A DNA stretch of 64,000 nt from Lactiplantibacillus pentosus (GTDB lineage Bacteria > Bacillota > Bacilli > Lactobacillales > Lactobacillaceae): assembly GCF_003641185.1 (NCBI RefSeq), contig NZ_CP032757.1:1798001-1862000 (forward strand), read 5' to 3'. Position 1 is the stretch's first letter. Each line of letters starts with the position of its first letter. Shown piece after piece: positions 6,275 to 59,144 of the stretch. Made by a program: the position numbers and the translations under genes. The notes under the pieces were generated by a model that made no database searches, was not told the DNA's origin, and saw nothing but the letters and a program-made list of their open reading frames with translations.

Positions 6275-6859
6275 ATGACGCCAATTACCACGATTACGAG
6301 CACGACGATCCCATTGATGAAAGAAAATATTGATACTGACCAGATTATTCCAAAACAATTTTTGAAGAACATTTTAAAAGTCGGTTATGGCGACCATCTA
6401 TTTTATGACTGGCGCTACCGTCATCCCAACGATCCGGACCCGGAGTTCATTTTAAACCGACCGGAACGGCAGGGGGCTCATATTCTAGTGACGGGTGCGA
6501 ACTTTGGCTGCGGCTCCTCACGTGAACACGCGGTGTGGGCCCTTAAGGACTTCGGCTTTCAAGTAATCATTGCTGGCAGTTACAGTGATATTTTCTACAT
6601 GAACAGCACCAAAAATGGTGTACTGGCGATCACTTTGCCGGAAGCAGACCGGCTTCAATTAGCACAAATTGCGCCGAATGCGGAAGTGACGGTCGATTTA
6701 CCCAACCAGGTCGTTTGCTACCAAGATCAACAGTTTTATTTTGAAATTGACCCGTTATGGAAACACAAATTTATTAATGGCTTGGACGATATTGCGATTA
6801 CGATGGGATATGAAGACCAGATTGAGGCCTATGAAGCGAAGATTCCAACTTATGATTGA
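6275..6859 (+). CDS. leuD: 3-Isopropylmalate dehydratase, small subunit
   Basis: The 194-residue swivelling-domain partner of LeuC. Family marks are [14 protein letters not shown] near the N terminus and [17 protein letters not shown], the substrate-recognition loop. The ATG at 6275 begins one base after the leuC stop and has GAAAGGAAG upstream; the longer open frame to the left lies inside leuC and lacks a ribosome site. The next gene starts 11 bases after the stop. Confidence 0.96.
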
Positions 6860-6870
6860 AAGGGTGGTTC

Positions 6871-8184
6871 ATGCGCATGGAAATTCAGACAGAGACACAG
6901 TTGCGACAGCGAATCGACCGGACCCATGAGTCACCGCTGTTTTATAAGATTTTTGCGTTAGTTGCAGGTGGCATGTTCTTGGATGCTGCGGATGTGTATA
7001 TGGCAAGTGCCGTCGCGAGCACGTTATTGAAGAGTGGCTGGTCAACGATTGCCACCAACTCGTACTTCCTATCGAGCGGCTTTTTGGGCCTCTTCATTGG
7101 TTCATTGACCGCTGGCTTTATCGGTGATTTGAAGGGACGCCGGGTCGCATATCAAGTTAATTTGTTACTATTTGGCGGCTTTACCTTTTTAGCAGCCTTT
7201 GCACCCAACATGGCGGTTTTGATTGGCTGTCGCTTGATTGCTAGTATCGGCTTAGGATCCGAAATCGTGACCGGGTATGCGATGATCAACGAGTTCGCAC
7301 CCGTGCATCGGCGCGGACGGTGGTGTGCCAGCGTGTCGGTGATTGCCAACACGGGCGCCCCAGTGACGATGCTTGCTTGCACGATGATCATTCCGCGCTT
7401 TGGTTGGCGGGTGATGTTTGCCGCGATTGGCATCATTGCCGCAATCTTGTGGGTGCTCCGCCGCGACATTCCAGAATCACCCCGGTGGTTGTTGAGCCAC
7501 GGCCAACCAGTCGCTGCGGCTGCGGTGATCAAACGTTTGGAAGTCTCAACGGGACAGGCACACGTGGATGAGGCACAAACCACATCAGTCCGGCCCAATG
7601 CACCAGTTAGCCGGCACCTAGGTGTCAGTTTATTCGTCGCCATCGTTGCCGTTTCAGCCACGATTATTTGTCAGTATACATTTACTTCCTGGGTACCAAC
7701 GTTATTGGTCAAACGCGGCATCAACGTGGCGGGCTCCCTAGGGGTATCAACCGTCATGATGTTAGGCGCCCCAATCGGCTGCGCAGTCGGTGCTTACTTG
7801 GTCGATCGTATTGGCCGCAAATGTACCATCGTGCCGGCCTTTCTACTGACAGCGGTACTTGGCATGGGATATGGACAACAAACTGCGATCCGTGGCGTTG
7901 TCATGGTGGGCTTTGCACTGACCGTTTGCTTCTATATTCTAATGGCGAGTGTCGTCGCGGTATACGTCTCAGAGTTATTTCCGACTAAATTCCGCTTTCG
8001 TGGTTCTGGCATTGCTAACGGGACTGCAAAATTATTCACGGTTGCAATGCCAATCGTCGTTGCTTGGCTACTACAAGTGACCAGCGTCAACGTGATTTTC
8101 TGGATCATCAGCGGCATCGCATTGTTGGCTGGACTCATCGTCTGGGGACTAGGTGTTGAAACCAGTCAGCGGCGGTTAGATTGA
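6871..8184 (+). CDS. Major facilitator superfamily transporter of the leucine operon
   Basis: A 437-residue protein with about 12 hydrophobic segments. MFS signatures are seen after TM2 (GDLKGRR) and in the second half (VDRIGRKC), with PESPRWL at the central loop, resembling the sugar-porter and aromatic-acid:H+ symporter families. The ATG at 6871 follows AAAGGGTGG; the ATG at 6877 is an alternative. It follows leuD by 11 bases without a terminator, so it is probably co-transcribed and answers to the same attenuator. That suggests a branched-chain keto acid, hydroxy acid or isopropylmalate as substrate, but the sequence does not identify it. Confidence 0.85.
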   Translation: MRMEIQTETQLRQRIDRTHESPLFYKIFALVAGGMFLDAADVYMASAVASTLLKSGWSTIATNSYFLSSGFLGLFIGSLTAGFIGDLKGRRVAYQVNLLLFGGFTFLAAFAPNMAVLIGCRLIASIGLGSEIVTGYAMINEFAPVHRRGRWCASVSVIANTGAPVTMLACTMIIPRFGWRVMFAAIGIIAAILWVLRRDIPESPRWLLSHGQPVAAAAVIKRLEVSTGQAHVDEAQTTSVRPNAPVSRHLGVSLFVAIVAVSATIICQYTFTSWVPTLLVKRGINVAGSLGVSTVMMLGAPIGCAVGAYLVDRIGRKCTIVPAFLLTAVLGMGYGQQTAIRGVVMVGFALTVCFYILMASVVAVYVSELFPTKFRFRGSGIANGTAKLFTVAMPIVVAWLLQVTSVNVIFWIISGIALLAGLIVWGLGVETSQRRLD

Positions 8185-34665: not shown

Positions 34666-35056
34666 ATGTAAATTCTGGGTAATCGCGGTCGGCTTATGTC
34701 GGCTGAGGAAGGTCCATGCTCGCACAAGCTGCGATGCTTGTAGTGTTCGTGCTCGGTGAAAAAATAAGCCGGGGTGCCGATTTATCGGTAACGGCGGGAA
34801 AAACGGCTAAGGTTTCGGCTATGCCCGAGTATGCCTGAAAAGTGCCACAGTGACGATACTCAGTTGGAAACGACTGAGTTGGAACGCGGTAAACCCCGCG
34901 AGCGGGCAACCCAAACTACGGTAGGGGCGCTTCACATATGGAATTGAACTGAATGTGGGGGGAGATTTGTAATCTCGAGATAGATGATTACCGCCTAGTT
35001 AACAGACCCTGTACTTTGACTAGGTACAAAACATGGCCTACAGGAATTTACATTTA
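34666..35056 (+). ncRNA. rnpB: RNase P RNA (type B)
   Basis: Catalytic RNA that matures tRNA 5' ends. Conserved blocks are GAGGAAGGTCCATGCTCGCAC near 34708, in which the AAGTCC core has an A to G change, GAAAAGTGCCACAGTGACGA near 34838, GGAACGCGGTAAACCCC and ACAAAACATGGCCTACAGG near 35025. The ends pair as P1 (GTAAATTCTG 34668-34677 with CAGGAATTTAC 35041-35051). Position after gpsB is as in Bacillus. Ends are estimated to within about 10 bases. Confidence 0.95.
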
Positions 35057-53163: not shown

Positions 53164-53613
53164 ATGTGGATTTATATTCTATTGATGGTGGCGTTGGTCG
53201 CAGCTGACCAGGCTATCAAAGCAACAATTGTGAGTCATATCGCACTAGGGGCCAGCACGAGTGTGGTTCCCGGCCTATTATCATTGACCAATTTACATAA
53301 CAATGGGGCCGCCTGGAGCATTCTGGAAGGCAAAATGAGTTTCTTCTACTTAATCTCAGTCGTGGCGCTGGTTATCATGGGTTACTTGTTATGGCGGTTG
53401 CGCGGTAAATGGGCGTATGAGGTCGGCATCTCACTGATGATTGCCGGTACGTTGGGTAATTTCATTGACCGTGTGCGGCTGGGTTATGTCGTTGATATGT
53501 TCCAACTTGATTTTATTAATTTTCCAATCTTTAACTTTGCGGATTCGTGCCTGACGATCGGTGTGATTTTCATTTTGATTGGGGTCTTACGGGACGATAG
53601 TTTTGACAAATAA
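53164..53613 (+). CDS. lspA: Lipoprotein signal peptidase (signal peptidase II)
   Basis: Cleaves the signal peptide of prolipoproteins in the membrane. The 149-residue protein has four transmembrane helices and both catalytic aspartates: AGTLGNFIDRV (near residue 103) and NFADSCLTIGV (near 122), plus the N-terminal DQAIK and NNGAAWSIL segments. The gene precedes an RluD-type gene by 19 bp, a widespread pair. Confidence 0.96.
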   Translation: MWIYILLMVALVAADQAIKATIVSHIALGASTSVVPGLLSLTNLHNNGAAWSILEGKMSFFYLISVVALVIMGYLLWRLRGKWAYEVGISLMIAGTLGNFIDRVRLGYVVDMFQLDFINFPIFNFADSCLTIGVIFILIGVLRDDSFDK

Positions 53614-53632: not shown

Positions 53633-54556
53633 GTGGCAGGAGCGACCACGGAACAACAATATACGATTACGACGCAACAAGGCCGTTTGGACAAAGTGTT
53701 GGCTGGACTGCAGTCTGACTGGACACGTTCACAGGTCGATAAGTTGATCAAAACGGCGCAAGTAACGGTCAACGGTGAGGTTCAACCTAGTAAGTACAAG
53801 GTCAAAGTGGGCGACCAAATCACCGTCGCAGCCCAAACGGTCCAAACGACGACCATCGAACCGGAAAATATCCCGTTGGACATTGTTTATGAGGATGACG
53901 ATGTACTCGTCGTCAATAAGCCCCAAGGGATGGTCGTGCATCCGGCACCCGGGCATCCCGACCATACTTTGGTCAACGCCTTGCTATATCATAGTCCGTT
54001 ATCGACCATCAACGGCGAGTTTCGGCCGGGTATTGTGCACCGAATCGATAAGGATACGTCTGGCCTACTGATGGTTGCGAAAAATGACCGGGCACATCAG
54101 TCACTAGCGGCGCAACTCAAAGCCAAGACCAATCTGCGCGAATACGTCGCGTTGGTCCACGGCGTGATCAAGGAAGAGACTGGGACGATCAATGCACCTT
54201 TAGGTCGTTCGCCTAAGGATCGCAAGAAACAGGCCATCGTTAAGACTGGCCGACCAGCTGTAACGCATTTCAAAGTTTTGAAACGCTACCAGCACTACAC
54301 GTTGATTAGCTGCCGTTTAGAGACCGGGCGGACGCACCAGATTCGGGTCCACTTGCAGTCAATCGGTCATCCACTGGTTGGTGACCCCTTATATGGGCCC
54401 AAAAAGACCATTAAGGGACAGGGTCAGTTTTTGCATGCGCGCTTGCTCGGTTTTAAGCATCCTGTGACAGGGCAGCTGCTGACGTTTGAAGTACCTTTGC
54501 CACCGATTTTTACTGAAACCCTGGCTAAGCTTGACAAAACCGATTTGAATCATTAA
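53633..54556 (+). CDS. Large-subunit rRNA pseudouridine synthase, RluD type
   Basis: A 307-residue protein with an N-terminal S4 RNA-binding domain (about 15-75) and the RluA-family catalytic domain. The catalytic Asp lies in HRIDKDTSGLLMVAKN, and GRTHQIRVHL is a further family mark. It isomerises uridine in 23S rRNA. The start is GTG, seven bases after GGGAG. It is co-transcribed with lspA. Confidence 0.94.
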   Translation: MAGATTEQQYTITTQQGRLDKVLAGLQSDWTRSQVDKLIKTAQVTVNGEVQPSKYKVKVGDQITVAAQTVQTTTIEPENIPLDIVYEDDDVLVVNKPQGMVVHPAPGHPDHTLVNALLYHSPLSTINGEFRPGIVHRIDKDTSGLLMVAKNDRAHQSLAAQLKAKTNLREYVALVHGVIKEETGTINAPLGRSPKDRKKQAIVKTGRPAVTHFKVLKRYQHYTLISCRLETGRTHQIRVHLQSIGHPLVGDPLYGPKKTIKGQGQFLHARLLGFKHPVTGQLLTFEVPLPPIFTETLAKLDKTDLNH

Positions 54557-54573
54557 TCTAACAGTAAAGAATG

Positions 54574-54664
54574 TCCTTTAATCCGGCCCTGCGAGACTGA
54601 AAGGCAACCTGTTAACAATAACTTTTGTCGGCGGCCGTGACTCTGTGTCCGGCCGCCTTTCTTT
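54574..54664 (+). promoter_or_regulatory. PyrR-type pyrimidine attenuator leader
   Basis: The PyrR-binding stem-loop is recognisable at 54575-54605: CCTTT pairs with AAAGG, with an internal bulge and the loop CCTGCGAG, close to the family loop CCNGNGAG. It is followed by a terminator at 54630-54664 (GGCGGCCG with CGGCCGCC, then TTTCTTT). With UMP, PyrR would bind the first hairpin and favour termination before pyrR. The assignment is by pattern. Confidence 0.78.
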
Positions 54665-54686
54665 GTCATATGGGTGGTTCAAATGA

Positions 54687-55238
<552 letters not shown>

Positions 55239-55271: not shown

Positions 55272-56354
55272 ATGGCAGACCGCTATTTGATTCTTGAAGA
55301 CGGCAGCGCCTACCTAGGCGAAGGCTTTGGCTCGCCAGCGGTTTCGACTGGAGAAATCGTCGTCAATACGAGCATGACGGGCTATCAAGAAATTATTACC
55401 AATCAAATTTATCATAATCAAATCGTTGCTTTTACGCAGCCGACGATTGGCAGTTACGGCATCAATCACGACAGCTATGAATCGATTTTACCCACGGTCA
55501 AAGGGGTCGTCGTGCGTGATGTCGCTAGTATCTCGACTAATCGGCAGCGACGTTGGTCATTGGACCAATACCTAAAACAACAAAATATTCCAGGAATCAG
55601 TCACATCGACACCCGGCACCTCGCCAAGCAGTTACGAGCTAGCGGTCCAATGAAGGCCAGCATCGTGGACGTGGCGGATGCCCACGCTTTTGACCAACTC
55701 GGTGCAACCGTGTTGACCAATCAACAAGTTGCCGCCGTCGCCACACCAAAACCATTTCCCAATCCAGGGACTGGTTTGAACGTGGTCGTGGTCGATTTTG
55801 GACTGAAACACGGGATTTTACGTGAGCTTAGTAAACGGGCTTGCAACGTCACGGTGTTGCCATACACCGCCACGACCGAAGAAATTCTGAACCTTGATCC
55901 GGACGGGGTCGTCTTGTCAACCGGTCCTGGGAAACCACAAGACTTGCCGGACAGCGTGACTGAGATGATCAAAAATATTCAAAACCGGGTACCGCTCTTT
56001 GCAATTGGTCTCGGTCATGAATTGTTTGCGATGGCTAATGGTGCACAGATCATGAAGTTGTCACCCGAACATCACGGCACCAACCATCCGATTCGCGAAG
56101 TCATTACTAATCAGATTATTTATGCCTCACAGGGGCAAGGCTTTGCGGTCGATGCGGACACCGTTGACCGTAATAAATTAATTACCACGTTTGTTGATTT
56201 AATTGACGGGACGATTCAGGGCTTGCGTCTGCGCGATTTTCCAGCTTTTTCAGTCCAATTCTTCCCAGATGGCGCGCCCGGACCAACTGAGACGCGGGAT
56301 ATCTTCGATGAATTTGTTGAATCCATGCAACAAGCAAGGGGGCCAATCTGGTGA
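55272..56354 (+). CDS. CarA-like protein without the glutaminase triad
   Basis: The 360-residue chain aligns over its whole length with the carbamoyl-phosphate synthase small subunit: YLILEDGSAYLGEGFG, NTSMTGYQEIITN, SHIDTRHLAKQLR and VLSTGPGKPQD. The class I glutaminase triad is gone. The nucleophile Cys of GICLGHQ is Gly246 (AIGLGHE; GGT where TGT is expected), and the His and Glu of the YHPEA motif are Phe331 and Asp333 (QFFPDGAPGP). It cannot hydrolyse glutamine by the known mechanism. The frame has no stop or shift, and its end overlaps carB by four bases. It may bind a ligand or only support its partner. Confidence 0.9.
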   Translation: MADRYLILEDGSAYLGEGFGSPAVSTGEIVVNTSMTGYQEIITNQIYHNQIVAFTQPTIGSYGINHDSYESILPTVKGVVVRDVASISTNRQRRWSLDQYLKQQNIPGISHIDTRHLAKQLRASGPMKASIVDVADAHAFDQLGATVLTNQQVAAVATPKPFPNPGTGLNVVVVDFGLKHGILRELSKRACNVTVLPYTATTEEILNLDPDGVVLSTGPGKPQDLPDSVTEMIKNIQNRVPLFAIGLGHELFAMANGAQIMKLSPEHHGTNHPIREVITNQIIYASQGQGFAVDADTVDRNKLITTFVDLIDGTIQGLRLRDFPAFSVQFFPDGAPGPTETRDIFDEFVESMQQARGPIW

Positions 56355-58912
56355 ACAATCAAACCTTACAAAAAGTCCTGATCATCGGGGCGGGCCACAA
56401 CGATATCGGCCGTGAAGGACAACATGATGCGGCCGTCACCCAAATCGGTGCGGCGATTCGGCGACTCGGTATCGCGGTCGTACTCGTGGATAACAACGCC
56501 TATTCAGTGGCGGCGGAAAATCGGTTTGCGGATAAGGTCTACTTAGAGCCGTTGACGGTTGCTGCTGTGACTAAAATTATCGAGGCCGAGCAACCCGATG
56601 GCCTGATTCCTTCCTTGGGTGGCATTCAAACGGTGACCCTGATTCAGGGGTTAATTCGAAATAACGTGCTTAAGAATAATCAGGTCAAGCTGTTGCAGTG
56701 GGATCAAGACGTTGTCGATATGATCGTCAATCCCGCCCTCATGAGTAATCGACTGAAGGATATTGGCGAACCGGTGATTGCCTCGCAGGTCGTGGCCAGT
56801 ACTGCAGAAGCGATGGCGGTCGTGCGTCACGTCGGCTTCCCGGTCATCGTTAAATCAGTGGCGCCACGGATTGAAGCGAGTCGGCAACTCTGTGAAGATG
56901 AAGATGAACTGCAACAAGCGTTAGCGATGGGCTTCAAAGTGTCAGGTACCAAGCAATGCATTGTCGAACAAAGTATTGTTGGCTATAAGGAACTTGAGTT
57001 TGTTGCCGTCCGTGACCAAAAGGACACCGCATTACTCGTCAGTGGGATGGAAAACTTTGATCCGGTCGGCATTCACTCGGCGGACTCAATCGTTTTTGCG
57101 CCGACGCAGACGATCACTGACCAGGAGTATCAACAGTTTCGAGCCGCGATGCTGAAAATCATGCGTAAGCTGCGGCTCAGTGGGTCCTGCCACGTTCAGT
57201 TCGCCTTGGATCCGGCAACTCAAAATTACTATGTCATTAAAGTGACGCCGTATTTTGACCGCACGATGGCCTTGGCTGCCCGCGCAACCGAGTACCCACT
57301 CGCCCTAGTTGTCGGTAATCTGATGGTTGGCATTAGCTTAGCCGAAGTCAAATTACCAGGGGCTTATCGTAAACAGACGGCCCTCATTGAACCGGTGCTC
57401 GACCATATCGTCTGTCGCATCCCAGTCTGGCCGTTCAATGTGCTGAATAAGGTCAGCCACCAACTCGATACGGTCACTGAATCGACTGGATCCGTGATTG
57501 GCGTGGGTCGCTCAACGGAAGAAGCTTTGCTGAAAGGGTTGCGTTCGACCGATGAATCACGGTATCACGTGATTGCCAATCGGCCACAGAACTATTCTGA
57601 AGGCGAACTGATTCAGCGCTTGATTCACCCACAAGCTGGGCGGATGCTGATTCTGCTAGAGGCACTGAATCGGGGCTACCAGATTGACGAGCTAGCTGAG
57701 TTGACCAAGATCGACGCCTTTTATTTCTATAAATTAAGTCATATTTTAGAAATCGAACGCGCTTTACGTGAGCGGCCTTTCGACGTCCACGCATTGGGAC
57801 GGGCTAAATATTTTGGCTTTACCGATGAAGACGCGGCCGCTGCTTGGCAGGCCGAGGTCAGCAAAGTACGCCAGTTTGCACTGGAAAATGAAATTCGGCC
57901 GACGTTTAAAGAAATCGAACCAACGGCCGGCGAATTCACGGAACAAACTAGTACTTATTATTCAACTTATGAATTTGACAATGAAAGCCAACCGACTGCG
58001 GGTCGTCGTGTGGTCGTGATTGGCACCGGCGCCAACCGTATCGGGACTAACCATGGTAACGATTATCTCGTCTCACAGCTGTTGTTTTACTTGAAGAAGG
58101 CCAATTACGAGCCAATTTTGATCAATGCTAATCCGAATAGTGTGGCGATGACGCCGCAATTGGCGAAAAAGCGCTATGTTGAGCCTAAGCAGTATTCTGA
58201 CATTTTAAATGTGTTGGCGATTGAAAAGCCGTTGATCGTCTTTACCACGTACCATGACTATCGGCTGGGCCAACAGCTGATTCGGGATGGCTATCAAGTC
58301 ATTCAAATCAATAACAGTTTGCCACGCGAACAAATCAAGACGAACGATTCACCGGCCGTGGAAGTGATTACGGACGGAACGGATGTCTCGATTTTCGGCA
58401 TCAGCGAAATCATTGCTGGCAATAATCTTCGTGGCAACGTGCGCGGTGCGGTCGAAGTCTTCCCAATTCGGGATAAGGCTGAAAATCAAGCAATTACGGC
58501 ACTGACTGACGAAATCAAGCAACGGGTCCTCGCGATGGGCGCTCCCGGATTGTATACGGTACGCTTAGCAATTGCGGATACGAAGCTGCAACTGGCCACG
58601 ATTGAACCGATGAGCATTGCGACTATGGCACTGATCAGTAAAGCAAGTGGCTCGAGCGTGACCCGCTTATTACTACACGTGAAGTTGGGCGAGTCGTTGA
58701 CCAAGGTGATGTACGACTATCCAGACGTCAACCGCTTGAAGCCCGTTTACGTCCAGGCCAACACGTTCCCATATAATCATTTACAGATTTATGATGAAGT
58801 CGAAGCAACCGGCGAACCTGGTCACGCGACTGGGACGGTGATTGCCCATGGTGACACGTTGAAAGCGGCGTTGACGGCCTTGAATCAGGGCAATGAGGAC
58901 ACTGACTTCTAG
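56351..58912 (+). CDS. CarB-like protein with degenerate ATP-grasp domains
   Basis: An uninterrupted 853-residue homologue of the synthase large subunit, usually about 1,060. The N-half is full length, with MENFDPVGIHSADSIVFAP, but the Gly-rich ATP loop (family TLGGTGGG) reads SVAPRIEASRQ at about 168, and the metal-binding EVNPR segment reads KVTPYFDR from Lys297. The central oligomerisation domain (about 400-548) is present. The C-half starts GTGANRIG near 553, then about 80 residues holding its ATP loop are missing near 660, and it ends without the MGS-like allosteric domain (about 135 residues). Catalysis of either phosphorylation is unlikely. The long open frame argues for a retained non-catalytic role. 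Confidence 0.9.
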   Translation: MNNQTLQKVLIIGAGHNDIGREGQHDAAVTQIGAAIRRLGIAVVLVDNNAYSVAAENRFADKVYLEPLTVAAVTKIIEAEQPDGLIPSLGGIQTVTLIQGLIRNNVLKNNQVKLLQWDQDVVDMIVNPALMSNRLKDIGEPVIASQVVASTAEAMAVVRHVGFPVIVKSVAPRIEASRQLCEDEDELQQALAMGFKVSGTKQCIVEQSIVGYKELEFVAVRDQKDTALLVSGMENFDPVGIHSADSIVFAPTQTITDQEYQQFRAAMLKIMRKLRLSGSCHVQFALDPATQNYYVIKVTPYFDRTMALAARATEYPLALVVGNLMVGISLAEVKLPGAYRKQTALIEPVLDHIVCRIPVWPFNVLNKVSHQLDTVTESTGSVIGVGRSTEEALLKGLRSTDESRYHVIANRPQNYSEGELIQRLIHPQAGRMLILLEALNRGYQIDELAELTKIDAFYFYKLSHILEIERALRERPFDVHALGRAKYFGFTDEDAAAAWQAEVSKVRQFALENEIRPTFKEIEPTAGEFTEQTSTYYSTYEFDNESQPTAGRRVVVIGTGANRIGTNHGNDYLVSQLLFYLKKANYEPILINANPNSVAMTPQLAKKRYVEPKQYSDILNVLAIEKPLIVFTTYHDYRLGQQLIRDGYQVIQINNSLPREQIKTNDSPAVEVITDGTDVSIFGISEIIAGNNLRGNVRGAVEVFPIRDKAENQAITALTDEIKQRVLAMGAPGLYTVRLAIADTKLQLATIEPMSIATMALISKASGSSVTRLLLHVKLGESLTKVMYDYPDVNRLKPVYVQANTFPYNHLQIYDEVEATGEPGHATGTVIAHGDTLKAALTALNQGNEDTDF

Positions 58913-58979
58913 GTTGACATGCCCATGTTCGCTTGACACTGTGCCGTTATTTGACCAACGTCATTAAGAAATATTGGCG

Positions 58980-59018
58980 ATCGCAACCTAACCAAAACTT
59001 GGTCGGGTTGCGATTTTT
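58980..59018 (+). terminator. Terminator after the pyrR-carA-carB unit
   Basis: ATCGCAACC pairs with GGGTTGCGAT, with an inner ACCA/TGGT stem, and is followed by five T. Confidence 0.85.
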
Positions 59019-59144
59019 GAGTTGCGAGTGTGAACTAACGATAACCAGTTAACATTGGAATCAATGGGGTAAAACGGATATAATGTAAATTTAGGTGCTT
59101 GAACGAGTATCAGAACAAAAGGGTTAGTTGGGGAGGAATTGAAG

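What the first reader, a model, noticed from the sequence alone, without database searches (positions are those of the whole stretch)
55272..58912. A PyrR-linked carA-carB pair that has lost its catalytic residues but not its reading frames
CarA lacks all three glutaminase residues (Cys to Gly246, His to Phe331, Glu to Asp333). CarB has lost the Gly-rich ATP loop and the EVNPR metal site in the N-half, an ATP-binding block of about 80 residues in the C-half, and the C-terminal allosteric domain. Yet 1,213 codons remain open, the four-base carA/carB overlap is kept, and the pair follows pyrR behind a PyrR-type attenuator. Plain decay would be expected to bring stops and frameshifts. I infer a pseudoenzyme complex, perhaps a sensor or a regulator of the true carbamoyl-phosphate synthase or of PyrR.
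Basis: partly seen in the sequence, partly recalled or inferred. Interest (0 to 1): 0.9.

Follow-up and report, generated by a model that had tools for sequence, protein, structure and literature searches.

The report
A dead carbamoyl-phosphate synthase kept alive
Two neighbouring genes that look like carbamoyl-phosphate synthase have lost the parts needed to work as that enzyme, yet lactic acid bacteria keep them intact beside a pyrimidine regulator, so they probably do a different, still untested regulatory job.

Summary
CarA* (360 aa) and CarB* (853 aa) lack glutaminase residues, both ATP sites and the allosteric domain, but are open, overlap by four bases and follow pyrR and a PyrR-type leader. 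This is not decay: the pair is intact in 21 of 21 genus genomes, median dN/dS is 0.014 and 0.036, and in 10 genomes CarA* is more conserved than the active PyrAa (94.7% versus 89.3% identity).

It is no local oddity. The degenerate pair sits at the ancestral lspA-rluD-(pyrR) site in many Lactobacillaceae; one sub-type alone matches in 205 of 397 genomes. Enterococcus and Lacticaseibacillus keep a functional pyr operon there. Cys269 is Gly, and metal ligand Glu299 is Lys or Arg, in 59 of 59 sub-type I rows (55 distinct). Streptococci seem to have reached the same state separately.

Forty-six of the 205 have no true synthase, 37 of them no ATCase over cut-off, while PyrR leaders still front uptake and salvage genes. 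So it is not simply a regulator of co-resident synthase. Best guess: a non-catalytic partner of PyrR (about 0.5). Four PyrR-less genomes keep a related pair, against an obligate partnership.

The parts
53164..53613 (+). lspA-like gene; context that marks the ancestral pyr-operon site
   Evidence: ORF; same neighbour in many loci of other genera
53633..54556 (+). rluD-like pseudouridine synthase gene; upstream neighbour
   Evidence: rluD upstream of the pair in 20 of 20 loci and 20 of 20
54571..54664 (+). PyrR-type leader: PyrR-binding hairpin and GC-rich terminator with T run
   Evidence: RF00515, 26.4 bits, below gathering score 54, E 0.24; folding z -2.89 for 54562-54680; loop motif in 21 of 21 genus loci
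54714..55238 (+). pyrR (second copy in the genome, PyrR2-like), PRPP loop kept
   Evidence: NF003548 273.5 bits; residue table; two PyrR in 21 of 21 genus genomes
55272..56354 (+). carA*: degenerate CPS small subunit
   Evidence: NF009475 464 bits; residues
56007..56009 (+). codon of Gly246 in place of the catalytic Cys (E. coli Cys269)
   Evidence: Gly in 59 of 59 type I rows, 55 distinct
56262..56264 (+). codon of Phe331 in place of the catalytic His (E. coli His353)
56351..58912 (+). carB*: degenerate CPS large subunit, overlaps carA* by 4 bases; no allosteric domain
   Evidence: of the CPS domains only D1, D2 and D3 found by Pfam; domain coverage
57239..57241 (+). codon of Lys297 in place of the metal-binding Glu (E. 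coli Glu299) of the N-half ATP-grasp site
   Evidence: Lys or Arg in 59 of 59 type I rows
58978..59019 (+). intrinsic-terminator-like hairpin with T run after carB*
   Evidence: stretch 58965-59024 folds at -22.0 kcal/mol; not listed by the pattern scan

Best explanation
CarA*-CarB* is an ancient two-subunit pseudoenzyme. It descends from the functional carbamoyl-phosphate synthase of the ancestral pyr operon at the lspA-rluD-pyrR site (supported by synteny and tree). In Lactobacillaceae it lost the glutaminase residues, both ATP sites and, in the window's sub-type, the allosteric domain. The fold frame, the E215 and H243 positions of the N-half site and the oligomerisation domain stayed, and the metal Glu299 became a conserved Lys or Arg (shown by sequence). 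A second pyr operon elsewhere in this genome holds a CPS with its residues intact. The kept function is very unlikely to be ordinary carbamoyl phosphate synthesis, and I infer that it is non-catalytic: a CarA*-CarB* complex that binds a small ligand (a nucleotide, PRPP or an anion such as bicarbonate) and tunes PyrR. PyrR leaders still stand before uptake and salvage genes even in genomes without a true CPS. Shown: loss of catalytic residues, purifying selection, shared site, persistence without true CPS. Supported: descent from the native pyr-operon CPS. Inferred: complex formation, a ligand, contact with PyrR.
For: Selection. Distribution and synteny. Residue census. Descent from the native pyr-operon CPS: trees. 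Apparent second origin in Streptococcus, also behind pyrR. Pair kept without true CPS (46 of 205), mostly without ATCase over cut-off (37 of 46). All 205 type I genomes carry PyrR, but so do 386 of 397 family genomes. PyrR keeps its PRPP loop at the pair loci tabulated except two of genus g10. PyrR leaders are found in 13 of 14 CPS-less type I genomes tested, before NCS2 permeases nearest to uracil permease, upp, a cytosine/purine-type permease and a nucleoside deoxyribosyltransferase. CarB*-PyrR distance correlation given rluD 0.71, against 0.39 for CarB*-LspA (26 loci). In g10 PyrR lost its PRPP loop together with extreme divergence of the pair. In L. plantarum, PyrR2 is reported to control pyr genes in response to inorganic carbon (passage in PMC3582564).
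Against: Three good-quality g38 (Lactobacillus-type) genomes, G253, G306 and G335, and G037 (87% complete) have no PyrR but keep a degenerate pair of another sub-type. In 4 of 20 loci and in others the pair stands without pyrR next to it. The PyrR loop motif was seen between rluD and pyrR in 8 of 41 type I loci against 21 of 22 true loci (my count, one strict pattern). CarA*-PyrR correlation (0.58) is no better than CarA*-LspA (0.62), and over 36 loci without the LspA control CarB*-PyrR is 0.55. PyrR is nearly universal in the family, so co-occurrence says little. No structure, expression or binding data were available.
Confidence: 0.5

Rival explanations
1. The pair has a PyrR-independent function: a new ligand-binding scaffold or a new reaction built on the CPS fold, and its place beside pyrR is only the inherited site of the old pyr operon.
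For: Pair kept in four genomes without PyrR; pyrR not adjacent in 4 of 20 loci and in the Paucilactobacillus and Limosilactobacillus loci; site identical to that of functional operons in Enterococcus and Lacticaseibacillus.
Against: PyrR present in 205 of 205 type I genomes and next to the pair in 16 of 20 loci; streptococci converge on a dead pair behind pyrR too.
Confidence: 0.3
2. The pair is a regulatory or dominant-negative subunit of the true carbamoyl-phosphate synthase, forming mixed oligomers through the kept oligomerisation domain.
For: Oligomerisation domain and CarA domains kept; in this genome two true CPS large subunits are present.
Against: 46 of 205 pair-bearing genomes have no CarB over the family cut-off, and 37 of these no ATCase over cut-off.
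Confidence: 0.08
3. The N-half still catalyses a partial or changed reaction, such as a bicarbonate- or anion-dependent phosphotransfer.
For: E215 (58 of 59 rows), H243 (57 of 59) and R306 (49 of 59) kept in type I; type II keeps Glu299 in 8 of 8 and R303 in 5 of 8.
Against: In type I the metal ligand is Lys or Arg in 59 of 59 rows; different sub-types keep different residues, so there is no shared active site.
Confidence: 0.08
4. Slow neutral decay of a pseudogene pair.
For: Catalytic residues lost.
Against: Median dN/dS 0.014 and 0.036, no stops, kept start, overlap and length in 21 of 21 genomes; CarA* more conserved than active PyrAa in 10 genomes.
Confidence: 0.02

Closest known systems
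CarAB / PyrAaAb carbamoyl-phosphate synthase (glutamine-hydrolysing)
   Same: Two-gene order, domain order D1-D2-D3 and part of the C-half, sequence homology, genome site shared with functional pyr operons.
   Different: Nucleophile Cys, catalytic His, metal ligands, Gly loop, C-half ATP site and allosteric domain absent.
PyrR2 of Lactiplantibacillus plantarum (second PyrR, reported to answer to inorganic carbon)
   Same: The window's pyrR is a second PyrR copy in the genome; a paper passage credits PyrR1 and PyrR2 with pyrimidine and inorganic-carbon control respectively. That lp_1782 (PyrR2) sits beside such a pair in WCFS1 is inferred, not checked.
   Different: I found no text that mentions a degenerate CPS pair beside it in six searches of an open-licence library; the primary paper was not held.
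Metabolic pseudoenzymes turned regulators, such as HisZ beside HisG (recalled, no call)
   Same: Works-like comparison: an enzyme paralogue stripped of catalysis and kept as a partner.
   Different: Here both subunits of a large multi-site enzyme were stripped together, the partner is unproven, and the state seems to have arisen twice.

Membership tests
Glutamine-hydrolysing carbamoyl-phosphate synthase, small subunit (NF009475, TIGR01368) | Profile match over the curated cut-off | tested here: met
   464.2 against 221 and 366.7 against 307.35 bits
Glutamine-hydrolysing carbamoyl-phosphate synthase, small subunit (NF009475, TIGR01368) | Catalytic Cys269 and His353 | tested here: not met
   Gly246 and Phe331; Cys and His in 52 of 52 true rows
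Carbamoyl-phosphate synthase, large subunit (NF003671, TIGR01369) | Profile match over the curated cut-off | tested here: not met
   563.6 against 599 and 580.4 against 1027 bits
Carbamoyl-phosphate synthase, large subunit (NF003671, TIGR01369) | Two ATP-grasp sites with Mg ligands Glu299/Asn301 and Glu841/Asn843 | tested here: not met
   Lys and Thr in the N-half; C-half residues absent or unalignable
Carbamoyl-phosphate synthase, large subunit (NF003671, TIGR01369) | C-terminal allosteric (MGS-like) domain | tested here: not met
   8% of the E. coli domain covered; no Pfam match
Carbamoyl-phosphate synthase | Makes carbamoyl phosphate | not testable with these tools
   Needs an enzyme assay
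PyrR-controlled operon | PyrR-binding attenuator upstream | tested here: inconclusive
   RF00515 26.4 bits, below gathering 54; loop motif in 21 of 21 genus loci
Pseudoenzyme under purifying selection | Catalytic residues lost while the protein sequence is conserved across species | tested here: met

The most novel reading that the evidence does not exclude
The dead synthase is the missing inorganic-carbon sensor of lactobacilli. Its former Mg-ATP/bicarbonate pocket, rebuilt by the Glu299-to-Lys and Arg303-to-Tyr changes, binds bicarbonate or another small anion without metal, and the complex hands the signal to the adjacent PyrR. This would explain the reported CO2 response through PyrR2 and why a dead CPS evolved behind pyrR apparently twice.
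Probability: 0.13. Interest if true: 0.92.

Novelty: new variant of a known kind. Interest (0 to 1): 0.82.

Why it matters
Many such CarA* proteins bear the name carbamoyl-phosphate synthase small subunit in public sources: of the 120 hits listed, 108 have Gly at Cys269 (10 Cys, 2 unaligned), among them named Lactobacillus entries. Metabolic models may therefore credit CPS activity to organisms without it: 46 of the 205 pair-bearing genomes had no CarB over the family cut-off. (CarB* itself is named variously, often 'ATP-grasp domain-containing protein'.) A whole biosynthetic enzyme stripped of catalysis yet kept across a bacterial family, with an apparent second origin in streptococci, suggests that CPS may carry a second, non-catalytic job beside PyrR. 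It also makes the question of how L. plantarum senses inorganic carbon through PyrR2 directly testable: deletion of pyrR2 could have affected the pair behind it.

Tried and rejected
Decay was rejected by dN/dS and reading-frame conservation. A regulator of the true CPS as a general role was rejected by genomes with the pair and no CPS. An obligate PyrR partner was weakened by four PyrR-less genomes. A single origin of all degenerate pairs, streptococci included, was rejected by an AU test (p 0.0126; the group was named by me after an earlier tree, and long branches are a caution); the earlier quick tree had placed S. agalactiae inside the Lactobacillaceae group. The Asp333 change was rejected as a sign of inactivity because true PyrAa rows carry it. 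No near plasmid match was found. Paper searches for a degenerate or pseudoenzyme CPS showed nothing relevant in their listings (two searches listed 0 and 1 papers, one search listed 15 of 84).

Weak points. The 205 count uses a C-terminal model; 150 of its 205 rows were printed, so 55 frame lengths were not seen, and two printed rows had short frames (667 and 473 aa). Sub-types II and III were read at eight loci each and not counted over the family. The 59 type I rows hold four pairs reached twice (55 distinct), and one search used some of these duplicates. Rows were sorted into 'true' and degenerate by locus and CarB after residues had been seen. Synonymous sites are near saturation: 157 of 210 pairs were usable for carA*, 42 of 210 for carB*. 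One search used one strict pattern, and its label for L125 was wrong (a true CarA). Four other Loigolactobacillus CarA proteins in the list keep Cys and His, so L. rennini need not speak for its genus.
Full report
What is there. The window holds, on the + strand, an lspA-like gene, an rluD-like gene, a PyrR-type leader (54571-54664), pyrR (54714-55238), carA* (55272-56354, 360 aa) and carB* (56351-58912, 853 aa, GTG start, four-base overlap), then a terminator-like hairpin at about 58978-59019 (-22.0 kcal/mol for the stretch 58965-59024; the pattern scan did not list it). Pfam finds the CPS small-chain and GATase domains in CarA* and, of the CPS large-chain domains, D1, D2 and D3 in CarB*. NCBIfam's CPS small-subunit models are passed over cut-off, while both large-subunit models are missed. 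Rfam's PyrR model scores 26.4 bits, under its gathering score of 54, but the PyrR loop motif is present in 21 of 21 genus loci (20 fetched plus the window).

What is missing. Aligned to E. coli, CarA* has Ile, Gly, Phe and Asp at Ser47, Cys269, His353 and Glu355. The last is not diagnostic: the genome's true PyrAa also has Asp, as do 39 of 52 true rows. CarB* has P, I, E, K, T and Y at R129, G175, G176, E299, N301 and R303, but keeps E215, H243, Q285 and R306. The E. coli C-half ATP-grasp is 68% covered without its catalytic residues, and the allosteric domain 8%. The roles of these positions are recalled from E. coli work. The same genome has two true CarB, at C1:551390-554170 and C1:2698606-2701767; the second lies in an operon that reads pyrR, pyrB, pyrC, carA, carB, pyrD, pyrF, pyrE, named by ORF order and recognition, with the pyrB and pyrR assignments later matched by profile.

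Selection. All 21 genus genomes examined carry the CarB* frame without stops. CarA* is exactly 360 aa in 21 of 21, CarB* 851-855 aa, GTG start and 4-nt overlap in 21 of 21. Nei-Gojobori dN/dS medians are 0.014 for carA* (157 usable of 210 pairs) and 0.036 for carB* (42 usable of 210). In 10 genomes where the true pyrAa was also at hand, CarA* is 94.7% identical at the median and PyrAa 89.3%; dN/dS 0.0153 (32 usable of 45 pairs) and 0.0235 (24 of 45). A protein that has lost its active site evolves more slowly than the active one.

Distribution. A model of the unique CarB* C-terminus matches 205 of 397 Lactobacillaceae genomes (E at most 1e-12) in 20 of 40 genera. Of the 150 rows printed, 148 have frames of 814-906 aa and two are shorter; 55 rows were not printed. 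Twenty loci from 16 other genera show carA* and a short carB* behind rluD in 20 of 20, with pyrR between in 16 of 20. At the same rluD-pyrR site, Enterococcus, Vagococcus, Lacticaseibacillus, Latilactobacillus, Listeria and Caldibacillus carry a pyr operon whose CarA and CarB keep the catalytic residues.

More sub-types. Genomes that lack a type I match carry more diverged pairs at the same site: type II (eight loci read; CarB* 789-800 aa; named relatives Companilactobacillus and Bombilactobacillus), type III (eight loci read; full-length but dead CarB*, 1054-1067 aa; named relatives of the g38 and g28 forms are Lactobacillus and Holzapfeliella) and an extreme form in g10, where PyrR too has lost its PRPP loop (two loci read in full). 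One genome, G178, has rluD and pyrR but no pair there. Loigolactobacillus rennini keeps Cys269 but has lost His353 and the CarB sites, like an intermediate, though four other Loigolactobacillus CarA keep both. Cys269 is Gly in 59 of 59 type I rows (55 distinct), 8 of 8 type II and 8 of 8 type III, and Cys in 52 of 52 true rows. Glu299 is Lys or Arg in 59 of 59 type I rows (46 and 13) and Glu in 44 of 44 true rows, while type II keeps Glu in 8 of 8. The absence of one shared surviving site argues against a common hidden reaction. Gly at the nucleophile position may be favoured because the elbow is strained (recalled structural knowledge).

Origin. In a 69-row quick tree type I is one clade (SH-aLRT 100), and all 45 degenerate rows group (92) next to the true CarA of Lacticaseibacillus and Latilactobacillus, then Enterococcus, at the same site, while this genome's working PyrAa belongs to another clade (99) with other pyr-operon CarA of Lactobacillaceae. 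A careful 59-row tree with more streptococci gives the Lactobacillaceae degenerate rows as a group at 81/87 and four streptococcal degenerate rows as a group at 93/86 beside true streptococcal CarA (90/73); one common group is rejected (AU p 0.0126). Long branches make this provisional. In streptococci the degenerate pairs also follow pyrR: directly in S. agalactiae (L163), with one gene between in L207, and with pyrB between in L208 and L209; CarB* is 532-579 aa and Cys269 is Gly in 4 of 4. The S. agalactiae form was found in 1 of 118 streptococcal genomes searched; eight others gave only one weak match in a 582-591 aa frame, and 10 gave none; three of those eight loci were read. S. agalactiae also has a true CarB elsewhere. 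So the native CPS appears to have been replaced by another pyr operon, or lost, and kept as a non-enzyme.

Not just a regulator of CPS. Of the 205 genomes, 46 have only the degenerate CarB (none over the 599-bit cut-off). I selected these by hand from the two tables; one of them, G180, is fragmented, and a few are under 95% complete. Of the 46, 9 have an ATCase over cut-off and 37 do not; the eight streptococci have one in 8 of 8. PyrR is in 60 of 60 genomes (45 of the 46 plus 15 others) and in 386 of 397 of the family; the 11 without it include none of the 205. Seven of the 11 belong to genus g30, whose sites I did not read. RF00515 leaders are found in 13 of 14 CPS-less type I genomes tested (8 over gathering; two only at 33-34 bits). 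Ten genes downstream of such leaders, picked from the 30 loci, were checked by profile: five NCS2 permeases nearest to uracil permease (one reaches that model's cut-off), one Upp, one OMP decarboxylase, one cytosine/purine-type permease, one nucleoside deoxyribosyltransferase and one MFS transporter. PyrR therefore probably still has targets there, mainly for uptake and salvage.

Link with PyrR. For: linkage in most loci read, retention of PyrR's PRPP loop and most RNA-binding positions (positions recalled from B. subtilis work; table), co-divergence in g10, and a CarB*-PyrR partial distance correlation of 0.71 against 0.39 for CarB*-LspA and 0.40 for PyrR-LspA (26 loci). Against: CarA*-PyrR (0.58) is no better than CarA*-LspA (0.62), and over 36 loci CarB*-PyrR is 0.55; three good-quality g38 genomes and one 87%-complete genome have a pair and no PyrR, two of the four with no leader match and two with weak ones; the leader motif was seen in 8 of 41 type I loci against 21 of 22 true loci (my count).

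Known work. A passage in PMC3582564 says that PyrR1 and PyrR2 control the L. plantarum pyr operon in response to pyrimidines and inorganic carbon; a table passage in PMC7911632 names lp_1782 as pyrR2 and lp_2704 as pyrR1. The primary paper (PMC1698236) is not held; from recall, deletion of pyrR2 made growth CO2-dependent. Whether that deletion affected genes behind pyrR2 I could not check. No text on a degenerate pair was found in the open-licence library; most subscription papers are outside it.

Judgement. That this is a conserved pair unable to act as an ordinary CPS: about 0.93. That its main role is with PyrR: about 0.5. The inorganic-carbon sensor version: about 0.13.

Noticed in passing
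L192 (G029) 7582-8058 and L210 (G067) 6547-7017: In one Lactobacillaceae genus (g10) PyrR itself is degenerate: PRPP loop gone, DRGHRE motif kept, frame intact, in an operon with an extremely diverged carA*-carB*.
   Followed up: partly
L207, L208, L209 (streptococcal genomes G508, G421, G435): carA* with Cys to Gly and a carB* of 576-579 aa behind pyrR; eight streptococcal genomes of this kind gave no full-length CarB match but all have an ATCase over cut-off, so their carbamoyl phosphate source is unclear.
   Followed up: partly
L128 (Loigolactobacillus rennini) 1204-2241: CarA keeps the catalytic Cys but has lost the His, and CarB has lost both ATP sites; it looks like an intermediate stage of the same loss.
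   Followed up: partly
L071, L072, L077, L080, L081, L083: THF riboswitches over gathering score lie a few kilobases from the pair in 6 of the 11 loci scanned.
   Followed up: no
window 34671-35045: Bacterial RNase P class B RNA, 336.5 bits.
   Followed up: no
G146 C45:102210, G227 C67:63653, G319 C1:50799: PyrR rows reported with one stop inside in g6 genomes that hold a second PyrR copy; may be only the gene's own stop codon.
   Followed up: no
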